Shown: positions 53,561 to 55,123 of the stretch, one piece after another | Layout of the letters: every line of letters begins with the position of its first letter | Position numbering within the stretch: position 1 is the first letter of the stretch | NCBI GenBank assembly: GCA_949788275.1 | Contig: OX460916.1 | Coordinates: forward strand, 2,046,001-2,110,000 | DNA: 64,000 nt | Reading direction: 5' to 3' | From: Weeksellaceae bacterium | GTDB lineage: Bacteria > Bacteroidota > Bacteroidia > Flavobacteriales > Weeksellaceae | The notes under the pieces: generated by a model | Database searches by the model: none | Seen by the model: only the letters and a program-made list of their open reading frames with translations | What the model was told of the DNA's origin: nothing | Translations under genes and position numbers: made by a program

Positions 53561-53663
53561 GGGCGGCTGCTACGCACCGGGCTATTCGCTAAATCTTTGC
53601 TGCCTAAAATTCCTGTAAAAAAATCCAATATTCGGTTGGGCAGCAAAGGATACCGCTGCTATC
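53561..53663 (+). repeat. Structured intergenic repeat, copy C, left part (split by IS110)
   Basis: Begins GGGCGGC, mini-hairpin TGC-TAC-GCA, then CCGGGCTATTCGCTAAATC, apical stem TTTGCTGCC/GGCAGCAAA, and GGATACCGCTGCTATC, where the IS begins. The missing tail CCTGCCGC is found at 55001-55008. The two outer arms GCGGC and GCCGC, now about 1.4 kb apart, are complementary, which shows that one element was interrupted. Confidence 0.85.
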
Positions 53664-53680
53664 TCTTAGGTTTGTATAAA

Positions 53681-53862
53681 TAAAAAAGATTAATAAATTA
53701 GAGTATTGTTTAATCAAGATTACAACTAGTAAAGGCGCTTTTAGCTTCTATCCAAGTTTTAAGACTTATGCAGGGATTTAATCCTTTACTAGTTTTTTAA
53801 ACAAGCTTCAAATAGAAATTTAGGAAAGACCTATTATCAGAGAATTGAAAGTGTTTAAAATG
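53681..53862 (+). ncRNA. Bridge RNA of the IS110 element (predicted)
   Basis: Two stem-loops fold by eye. The target-binding loop has a 12-bp outer stem (53724-53735 with 53783-53794). Its 5' arm is GCTTCTATC (53744-53752), matching the left target GCTGCTATC with one mismatch; its 3' arm GCAGGGAT (53770-53777) is the exact complement of the right flank ATCCCTGC; an apical AAGT/ACTT stem sits between. The donor-binding loop is closed by TTTTAAACA/TGTTTAAAA and CTTCAA/TTGAAAG. It carries ATAGAAAT (53812-53819), identical to the right IS end, and AGAGA (53839-53843), complementary to TCTCT at the left end. A 5' hairpin (53688-53715) precedes both loops. This is the architecture described for IS621 bridge RNA. 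Confidence 0.78.
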
Positions 53863-53882
53863 TAATCTTAATCATAAAAGAT

Positions 53883-54926
53883 ATGACAAATATAGAAAAA
53901 GTAACGCATTACATTGGTATTGATATCTCTAAAAAAACGTTAGATATTGCTATTTATAAACAGAATTCGTTTTTATTTCATGAGCAAATCAATAATACTC
54001 CGACCAGTCTTAAGACCTTTTTTAAGTCCCTAAATAAGAGAGGTGTAGATTTAAGTCAGAGCATTGTCTGTGCTGAATTTACAGGAGTTTATACTCAATT
54101 TTTAATCAATAGTGCTCAGTTATTGAACCTTAATTTATGGCTTGAAAACGGAAACCATATCAAAAAATCACAAGGTTTAAAACGGGGTAAAAACGATAAA
54201 GTAGATGCTCAACGAATAGCTCAATTTGCCTATAAAAATAAGGATGATTATAAAGCTTATCAAGAACCACGAGCACTAGTTAAGACGTTAAAGGAACTGA
54301 TTAATAGACGTAAGCAATTGGTTAGTTTAAAGAAACAATTATCAGGAGCTTTAGGTGAAAAAGAATATAAAAACGAGGAAGATCTTGCTCTACTTAAATC
54401 ACTGTGTGAAAACACATTGAATGGACTGGAGACTGATCTGAAACGTATTGAGCGGGAAATAGACCGATTGATAAAGTCGGACGAAAAAATGTTCAATCAA
54501 TATAAAATTATTAACTCTGTTGTCGGAATGGGACCCGTAACTGCAGCTAATATGATTATGATGACGAACGAGTTTTCAGCTTTTTTGGAAGCTAAAAAAT
54601 TTGCATGTTACGCAGGAGTAGTTCCTTTTAGCTATACGTCAGGGAGCAGTGTAAGTAGTAAGGCAAAAGTTTCTAAAATGGCTAACCACCAGATGAAAAC
54701 ACTTTTGCATATGGCAGCCATGTCTTGTATACGGAGTGAAGGGAATTTACGTGAATATTATTTACGAAAAACGGAAGAAGGAAAAAATAAAATGTCGGTC
54801 ATTAATGCTATTCGTAACAAGTTAATATTGAGAGTATTTGCATGTATTAGAGATAATCGGTTTTATGACAAAGATTATAAATATAGCACGAAATTAATGC
54901 AAAATGAAATGGCTATTCATTGTTAA
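53883..54926 (+). CDS. IS110-family transposase (bridge-RNA-guided recombinase)
   Basis: A 347-residue protein with the N-terminal RuvC-like DEDD domain: Asp in YIGIDISKKTLDIA, Glu in CAEFTGVY, and the DKVDAQRIA aspartates, separated by a coiled coil (about 125-205) from the C-terminal transposase domain GMGPVTAANMIMM...FACYAGVVPFSYTSGSSVSSKAKVSK, whose Ser-rich segment should hold the catalytic serine. Members recombine DNA with a bridge RNA encoded in the element. The reading frame is intact and of usual length, so the element is probably active. The ATG at 53883 lies 21 bases after the predicted RNA end. Confidence 0.93.
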   Translation: MTNIEKVTHYIGIDISKKTLDIAIYKQNSFLFHEQINNTPTSLKTFFKSLNKRGVDLSQSIVCAEFTGVYTQFLINSAQLLNLNLWLENGNHIKKSQGLKRGKNDKVDAQRIAQFAYKNKDDYKAYQEPRALVKTLKELINRRKQLVSLKKQLSGALGEKEYKNEEDLALLKSLCENTLNGLETDLKRIEREIDRLIKSDEKMFNQYKIINSVVGMGPVTAANMIMMTNEFSAFLEAKKFACYAGVVPFSYTSGSSVSSKAKVSKMANHQMKTLLHMAAMSCIRSEGNLREYYLRKTEEGKNKMSVINAIRNKLILRVFACIRDNRFYDKDYKYSTKLMQNEMAIHC

Positions 54927-54997
54927 TAAAAGAGAAAAAGATCAAACTAGCATTAAACGTAAAAAAAAAACATTTTTAATTTGGTGAAACCATAGAA

Positions 54998-55008
54998 ATC
55001 CCTGCCGC
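54998..55008 (+). repeat. Structured intergenic repeat, copy C, right end
   Basis: ATCCCTGCCGC completes copy C after the IS. Its GCCGC arm pairs with GCGGC of the left part. In A1 the same place reads ATCCCTACCGC. Confidence 0.8.
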
Positions 55009-55011
55009 GAA

Positions 55012-55060
55012 GCCTCGTATGTAAAAAACTCTTTTGAGAAGAGTTTTTTACATACGAGGC
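55012..55060. repeat. Perfect 22-bp inverted repeat at the 3' end of copy C
   Basis: Arms at 55012-55033 and 55039-55060 with a 5-base loop; sequence from GCCTCGTATG to its complement CATACGAGGC. It starts 3 bases beyond the repeat's arm, exactly as in copies A2 and B. Confidence 0.88.
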
Positions 55061-55123
55061 GTTTAAGGTTTAAGGTTTAAGGTTTAAGGTTTAAGGTTTA
55101 AGGTTTAAGGTTTAAGGTTTAAG
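55061..55123 (+). repeat. Nine tandem copies of GTTTAAG
   Basis: Exactly nine perfect 7-base units, starting directly after the inverted repeat. The unit number is likely to vary between isolates. No gene frame is affected; it lies about 200 bases before the guaB promoter. Confidence 0.97.

What the first reader, a model, noticed from the sequence alone, without database searches (positions are those of the whole stretch)
53681..53862. A bridge RNA can be read directly from the IS110 left end
The region between the left IS end and the transposase forms two stem-loops of the kind described for IS621. In the first, GCTTCTATC (53744-53752) resembles the left target GCTGCTATC (8 of 9), and GCAGGGAT (53770-53777) is the exact complement of the right target ATCCCTGC. 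In the second, ATAGAAAT (53812-53819) is identical to the right IS end and AGAGA complements the left end. The AT core is shared by the two target guides and the left donor guide. This gives a testable target and donor code for a Bacteroidetes IS110 without any alignment.
Basis: partly seen in the sequence, partly recalled or inferred. Interest (0 to 1): 0.9.

Follow-up and report, generated by a model that had tools for sequence, protein, structure and literature searches.

The report
IS110 bridge RNA targeting Flavo-1 repeats
A jumping DNA element in a flavobacterium-like genome carries a small guide RNA whose two loops spell out where it lands (a repeat scattered over 100 times through the genome) and its own ends, just as in the recently discovered IS621 bridge-RNA system; it is a well-supported new member of that known kind.

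Summary
The 219 bases between the left end and the IS110 transposase (53664-53882) encode an IS621-type bridge RNA. The genome holds eight identical copies. All insert at GCT[T/G/C]C[T/A]A-TC-CCTGCCGC: the right target guide matches 8 of 8 exactly, the left guide matches 4 of 8 exactly and the rest with one mismatch. A covariance model built from 22 relatives without this element finds it in the window at E 4e-13. Across 17 diverse families all four guides match their own targets or ends better than any of 20,000 permutations, and the stems covary. New facts: the landing site is one end of the Rfam "Flavo-1" repeat (about 140 copies here). A second, only distantly related IS110 (5 copies) uses the other end of the same repeat. 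A Bacteroidetes promoter (-33 TTG, -7 TAn(n)TTTG) is split between the two ends and has correct spacing only in the circle. No transcript or recombination was tested. New member of a known kind.

The parts
53561..53661 (.). Left part of the interrupted Flavo-1 repeat (GGGCGGCTGC...GCTGCTA); it continues at 55001
   Evidence: Rfam RF01705 hit 53571-53676 minus strand, 42.2 bits; same layout in uninterrupted copies
53662..53663 (+). Core dinucleotide TC, left junction
   Evidence: Position fixed by homologous ends in relatives
53664..54998 (+). IS110-group insertion sequence IS-A (without cores)
   Evidence: Eight copies diverge at these ends
53667..53674 (+). -7 box TAGGTTTG of the predicted circle-junction promoter
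   Evidence: TAnnTTTG consensus (PMC9723704); 28-nt spacing to TTG in RE in 61 of 62 copies
53716..53869 (+). Bridge RNA structured part; outer stem 53716-53724 with 53861-53869
   Evidence: MFE fold; blind covariance model hit 53722-53846, 80.5 bits
53725..53793 (+). Target-binding loop; stem 53725-53735 with 53783-53793
   Evidence: 10 of 10 aligned pairs covary in 27 sequences
53744..53752 (+). Left target guide GCTTCTA-TC
   Evidence: Exact to 4 of 8 sites, 8/9 to the other 4
53770..53777 (+). Right target guide GCAGG-GA (+T), complement of TC-CCTGC
   Evidence: 7/7 at 8 of 8 sites
53798..53857 (+). Donor-binding loop; apical stem 53821-53824 with 53830-53833
   Evidence: 3 of 3 aligned apical pairs covary, 100% paired
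53812..53819 (+). Left donor guide ATAGAAA-T, identical to right IS end plus first core base
   Evidence: 8/8 here; 14 of 17 families 8/8
53839..53843 (+). Right donor guide AGA-GA, complement of TC-TCT of the left IS end
   Evidence: 5/5 here; own ends beat all permutations across families
53883..54926 (+). IS110 recombinase, 347 aa (DEDD domain plus Transposase_20)
   Evidence: PF01548 and PF02371; ISCro4 102 bits and IS621 97 bits in PDB
54980..54983 (+). -33 box TTTG, correctly spaced only when RE is joined to LE in the circle
54987..54991 (+). Short sub-terminal inverted repeat AAACC, partner GGTTT at 53669-53673
   Evidence: Sequence; some relatives keep AAC/GTT, AAAAC/GTTTT or TC/GA
54999..55000 (+). 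Core dinucleotide TC, right junction
   Evidence: As left core
55001..55008 (+). Right half of target, CCTGCCGC, end of the Flavo-1 repeat

Best explanation
IS-A is an IS110-group element that moves by bridge-RNA-guided recombination. After excision (inferred), the joined ends assemble a Bacteroidetes promoter that transcribes a bridge RNA of about 190 nt from near 53679. Its first loop pairs with both strands of GCTTCTA-TC-CCTGC, which is one end of the Flavo-1 repeat; its second loop pairs with the element's own joined ends ATAGAAA-TC-TCT. The recombinase joins the two at the shared core TC. The guide-target match, the structure and the ends are shown by sequence; the transcript, its binding to the protein and the recombination are inferred from IS621.
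For: Eight copies, all at guide-matching sites. Blind covariance hit, E 3.9e-13, next best 0.51. Stem covariation: 87.6% of cells paired versus 64% shuffled, score 0.736 versus 0.285, with no shuffle reaching it. Right target guide mean 6.4/7 own versus 5.0 permuted, left target guide 7.3/9 versus 6.0, 0 of 20,000. Left donor guide 7.8/8 versus 6.7 and right donor guide 4.65/5 versus 4.19, 0 of 20,000. Natural reprogramming: for example L066 has guide AAGCT and target AGCTT where its sisters have ATTCT and AGAAT. Intact target sites: 90 in this genome, 0 for the reversed control pattern; used sites lean towards the exact left-guide match (4/8 versus 13/90, p 0.03). Homologous to solved IS621 and ISCro4.
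Against: No RNA or recombination data. The left target guide fits poorly in some relatives (L053 and L108 families, and L060 at 5-6 of 9). In some families the left-junction core differs from the right in its first base, so the core rule is looser than two shared bases. The 17 families are not fully independent.
Confidence: 0.95

Rival explanations
1. The core is AT, and the right donor guide simply mispairs at the core.
For: AT is present at both ends and in three of the four guides; all eight own sites read ATC.
Against: In homologues the same position, 8 nt after the start of CATAGAA[AT] and just before CTTTA, holds TC, GC or AT; most TC copies have no AT on the left side. The right donor guide contains the TC complement in A and the matching core complement in the GC and AT families.
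Confidence: 0.07
2. The left-end RNA is only a structured leader regulating the transposase, and the site preference is set by the protein.
For: The stems lie directly upstream of the transposase start; the single-sequence fold is unexceptional.
Against: Loop positions covary with flanking target DNA across families while the stems are kept; a leader has no reason to do so.
Confidence: 0.02
3. The guide match is a by-product: the element captured part of a target repeat.
For: Targets are abundant repeats.
Against: The match is split over two separated loops on opposite strands and recurs at the same loop positions with different targets in other families.
Confidence: 0.01

Closest known systems
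IS621 and its bridge RNA (IS110 group; PMC11208160, PMC11208158)
   Same: Bridge RNA in the long left end; target loop then donor loop; four guides including the core; circle-junction promoter; targets a dispersed palindromic repeat (REP in E. coli); DEDD plus serine recombinase (97 bits to PDB 8wt6)
   Different: Core TC instead of CT; seven-base right target guide (core included); target is Flavo-1; promoter boxes of Bacteroidetes type instead of sigma-70
ISCro4 (PDB 9t56)
   Same: Best match among solved structures, 102 bits, nearly full length
   Different: Bridge RNA and target not compared here
ISPpu9, ISPpu10 and ISPa11 (REP-targeting IS110/IS1111 elements; PMC8450116, PMC11187229)
   Same: Landing in dispersed extragenic palindromes
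   Different: Other hosts; ISPa11 is IS1111 group with the RNA downstream of the transposase
ISEc21 seekRNA (PMC11187229)
   Same: IS110-type guide RNA upstream of the transposase, matching both strands of the target
   Different: Experimentally shown there; a different target
Flavo-1 RNA (RF01705)
   Same: The repeat interrupted by IS-A is a Flavo-1 copy just over the gathering score
   Different: It is the landing site, not the guide RNA; about 140 copies over the cut-off in this genome

Membership tests
IS110 group of the IS110 family | DEDD RuvC-like domain and Transposase_20 domain with conserved serine | tested here: met
   PF01548 and PF02371 over cut-off; aligned to ISCro4 over 4-325 with the SGSS motif kept
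IS110 group of the IS110 family | Long left end, short right end, RNA upstream of the transposase | tested here: met
   Left end 219 nt, right end 72 nt
IS110 group of the IS110 family | Short sub-terminal inverted repeats (2-3 bp; 7-17 bp would be IS1111) | tested here: inconclusive
   AAACC/GGTTT, 5 bp, between the two classes; relatives 0-5 bp
IS110 bridge RNA | Target loop with left and right guides matching the insertion site, core included | tested here: met
IS110 bridge RNA | Donor loop with left and right guides matching the joined ends, core included | tested here: met
   the second core base of the left donor guide is not a Watson-Crick match
IS110 bridge RNA | Conserved two-loop secondary structure | tested here: met
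IS110 bridge RNA | Promoter reconstituted at the RE-LE junction | tested here: met
   Sequence only: TTG to TTTG spacing 28 nt in 61 of 62 circles, 0 of 62 integrated flanks
IS110 bridge RNA | RNA is transcribed and bound by the recombinase; circle forms; guides direct recombination | not testable with these tools
   Needs small-RNA sequencing and recombination assays

The most novel reading that the evidence does not exclude
In this bacterial family, dispersed repeats act as shared landing pads for RNA-guided IS110 elements: lineages keep the bridge-RNA scaffold and switch loop sequences from one repeat family to another, and two distantly related IS110 systems here have converged on opposite ends of the same Flavo-1 repeat. 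The ends also co-evolve so that a Bacteroidetes promoter has the right spacing only in the excised circle.
Probability: 0.6. Interest if true: 0.6.

Novelty: new member of a known kind. Interest (0 to 1): 0.52.

Why it matters
It gives a ready target and donor code for a Bacteroidetes bridge recombinase with a TC core and a long right target guide, with many naturally reprogrammed relatives as a test set. It also gives the unexplained Flavo-1 repeat a concrete role as the landing site of two RNA-guided elements, and suggests how such a system is expressed in a phylum with unusual promoters.

Tried and rejected
Rfam gave no bridge RNA hit here; the only hit over its gathering score is the Flavo-1 target. 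The mir hits at 55010-55060 come from a long hairpin and are far below their gathering scores. The genome contigs and viral-contig scans found no close relative (the second used a relative's protein as query), and the best full-length recombinases elsewhere in 321 genomes of the family are 45% identical. Single-sequence folding gave only z -1.3. A search for the motor of Flavo-1: the only Y1 transposase gene in the genome sits in an array of a different repeat, so Flavo-1 was not tied to it. In 13 congeners the guaB upstream region could be read in 12; none shows Flavo-1 or the IS there, so no exact empty site was found; uninterrupted repeats elsewhere serve instead. A first scoring of the left donor guide picked wrong windows in four elements and was replaced. 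Small-RNA data were not available.

Full report
Setting. The window is part of a 3.34-Mb single-contig genome. The 347-aa protein at 53883-54926 is an IS110 recombinase (PF01548 and PF02371), homologous over nearly its whole length to the solved ISCro4 (102 bits) and IS621 (97 bits) enzymes. The same genome holds eight copies of this element (IS-A), identical in protein, with the same ends and length. A second IS110 (IS-B, 24% identical, five copies) is also present.

Check of the observation. Shuffles of the 182 bases gave the left target guide (8/9) 59 times in 20,000, the right target guide 16 times and ATAGAAAT 499 times; both target guides together never occurred. AGAGA alone is not informative. 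So the target-guide pair is far beyond chance even in one element.

Own copies. The eight sites are GCTTCTA-TC (4 copies), GCTTCAA-TC (2), GCTGCTA-TC (this window) and GCTCCTA-TC, all followed by CCTGCCGC. The right guide is 7/7 at all eight; the left guide is 9/9 at four and 8/9 at the rest. Ninety uninterrupted GCTNCNATCCCTGCC sites exist in the genome, against none for the reversed control. The used sites are enriched for the exact left-guide match (4/8 versus 13/90, one-sided p 0.03), a weak but consistent sign.

Homologues. 59 of 321 genomes of the family (this one included) hold matches, the others mostly at 27-50% identity. Their ends share CATAGAA[AT]-core on the right and core-CTTTA on the left, with minor variants. 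I read 62 copies with both ends. In most, the seven bases at the homologous loop position are the complement of that element's own core plus right target, at 6/7 or 7/7. Cases of reprogramming are clear: guides AGTTC, ACTTC and ATTTC go with targets GAACT, GAAGT and GAAAT; AAGCT and ATTCT go with AGCTT and AGAAT; GCAAA and ACATA go with TTTGC and TATGT. Taking 17 families with distinct RNAs and permuting targets among them, own matches beat all 20,000 permutations for the right and left target guides and for the left and right donor guides. The left target guide is poor in a few families (L053, L060, L108).

Structure. In 27 aligned left ends every pair of the target-loop stem and of the donor-loop apical stem shows compensatory changes; sliding the partners by one base cuts paired cells from 87.6% to 48-56%. 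The small apical stem of the target loop is aligned too loosely to be judged (67% paired). A covariance model built from 22 relatives without the window element finds 53722-53846 with 80.5 bits, E 3.9e-13; the next best hit in the 64 kb is E 0.51. This is the strongest single test, since the element was not in the model. The model has rough calibration, so the E-value is approximate.

Core. In relatives the position 8 bases after the start of CATAGAA[AT] and directly before CTTTA holds TC, GC or AT, and most TC copies have no AT on the left side. With TC the right donor guide AGA-GA includes the core complement; with AT it does not. The core is therefore most likely TC at 53662-53663 and 54999-55000. 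In several families the left junction has another first base than the right (for example GC left and TC right in L054, GT left and AT right in L072). The left junction then agrees with the left target guide and the right junction with the donor guide, which suggests that the left copy comes from the target and the right copy from the donor, with only the second base strictly shared. That is inference.

Landing site. The interrupted sequence is a Flavo-1 element of Rfam (RF01705, 42.2 bits against a gathering score of 42). Uninterrupted copies run GGGCGGCCGCTACGCGCCGGGCT - hairpin with variable loop - GCTGCTATCCCTGCCGC, and a second class has another middle between the same ends; IS-A always enters the right end. 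IS-B enters the left end of the same repeats in five of five copies, GGG-CT-AT[A/T]CGC, with core CT. Its own left end carries ACCGGGCT (left target guide) and AATATGAG (right donor guide, 7/8); its right target guide and left donor guide fit less well. Relatives of IS-A enter other sequences; two of these were checked and recur uninterrupted in their hosts. A Flavobacterium transcriptome study found Flavo-1 widespread but without a functional clue (PMC9723704). Landing in dispersed palindromes is known for IS621 and others (PMC11208160; PMC1525189).

Promoter. The left end begins with TAGGTTTG (53667-53674), a perfect TAnnTTTG, the -7 consensus of flavobacteria (PMC9723704). The -33 TTG-type box is from my general knowledge of Bacteroidetes promoters. 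In the joined circle a TTG in the right end lies exactly 28 bases (TTTG to TTTG) upstream in 61 of 62 copies and 16 of 17 families; no integrated copy has TTG at that place in its flank. Families whose left end is one base shorter have the right-end TTG shifted by one base in compensation. This parallels the circle-junction promoter reported for IS621 (PMC11208160) with phylum-specific boxes. The exception, L052, has uncertain ends.

Mechanism, with status. Shown by sequence: ends, target, guides, structure, covariation, promoter boxes. Inferred from IS621: excision to a circle, transcription near 53679, binding to the recombinase, strand exchange at TC. Verdict: a new, unusually well-supported member of a known kind. 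The parts a specialist may find new are the Flavo-1 link, the two distant systems on opposite ends of the same repeat, and the split Bacteroidetes promoter with compensated spacing.

Noticed in passing
L009-L013 (own genome, 5 copies): A second IS110 element (24% identical recombinase, core CT, inverted repeat AAGATA/TATCTT at its ends) inserts in the opposite end of the same Flavo-1 repeats and carries a matching left target guide ACCGGGCT in its left end.
   Followed up: partly
53667-53674 with 54980-54983; 62 copies in this genome and relatives: Promoter split between the IS ends: TTG in the right end and TAn(n)TTTG in the left end are 28 bases apart only in the excised circle, with compensating one-base shifts between families.
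   Followed up: yes
L054, L058, L064, L072 and relatives: Left and right junction cores often differ in the first base (GC/TC, AC/TC, TT/AT, GT/AT); the left tends to agree with the target guide, the right with the donor guide, suggesting strand-specific inheritance of the core.
   Followed up: partly
own genome, e.g. L014-L051: Flavo-1 (RF01705) behaves as a dispersed repeat with fixed ends and a variable hairpin loop, about 140 copies over the cut-off, with a second class of different middle (CCGCACTCGCTTTT...AAGCTCAAACAATT) between the same ends; it looks more like a mobile or REP-like repeat than an sRNA gene.
   Followed up: partly
L121 (own genome 720185-720529): The only Y1 (IS200/RAYT-like) transposase gene lies inside a long array of other repeats (GTCACCCCTAAAGGGGCTTAAAC and CCCAGAGGGATGGTAGTTTA units).
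   Followed up: no
window 55061-55122: Array of about eight GGTTTAA heptamers directly downstream of the interrupted Flavo-1 copy, following a long hairpin (about 55012-55060).
   Followed up: no
L123-L135 upstream of guaB: In the 12 congeners that could be read the region between the large membrane-protein gene and guaB shows neither Flavo-1 nor the IS, so the repeat itself probably arrived here in this lineage.
   Followed up: partly
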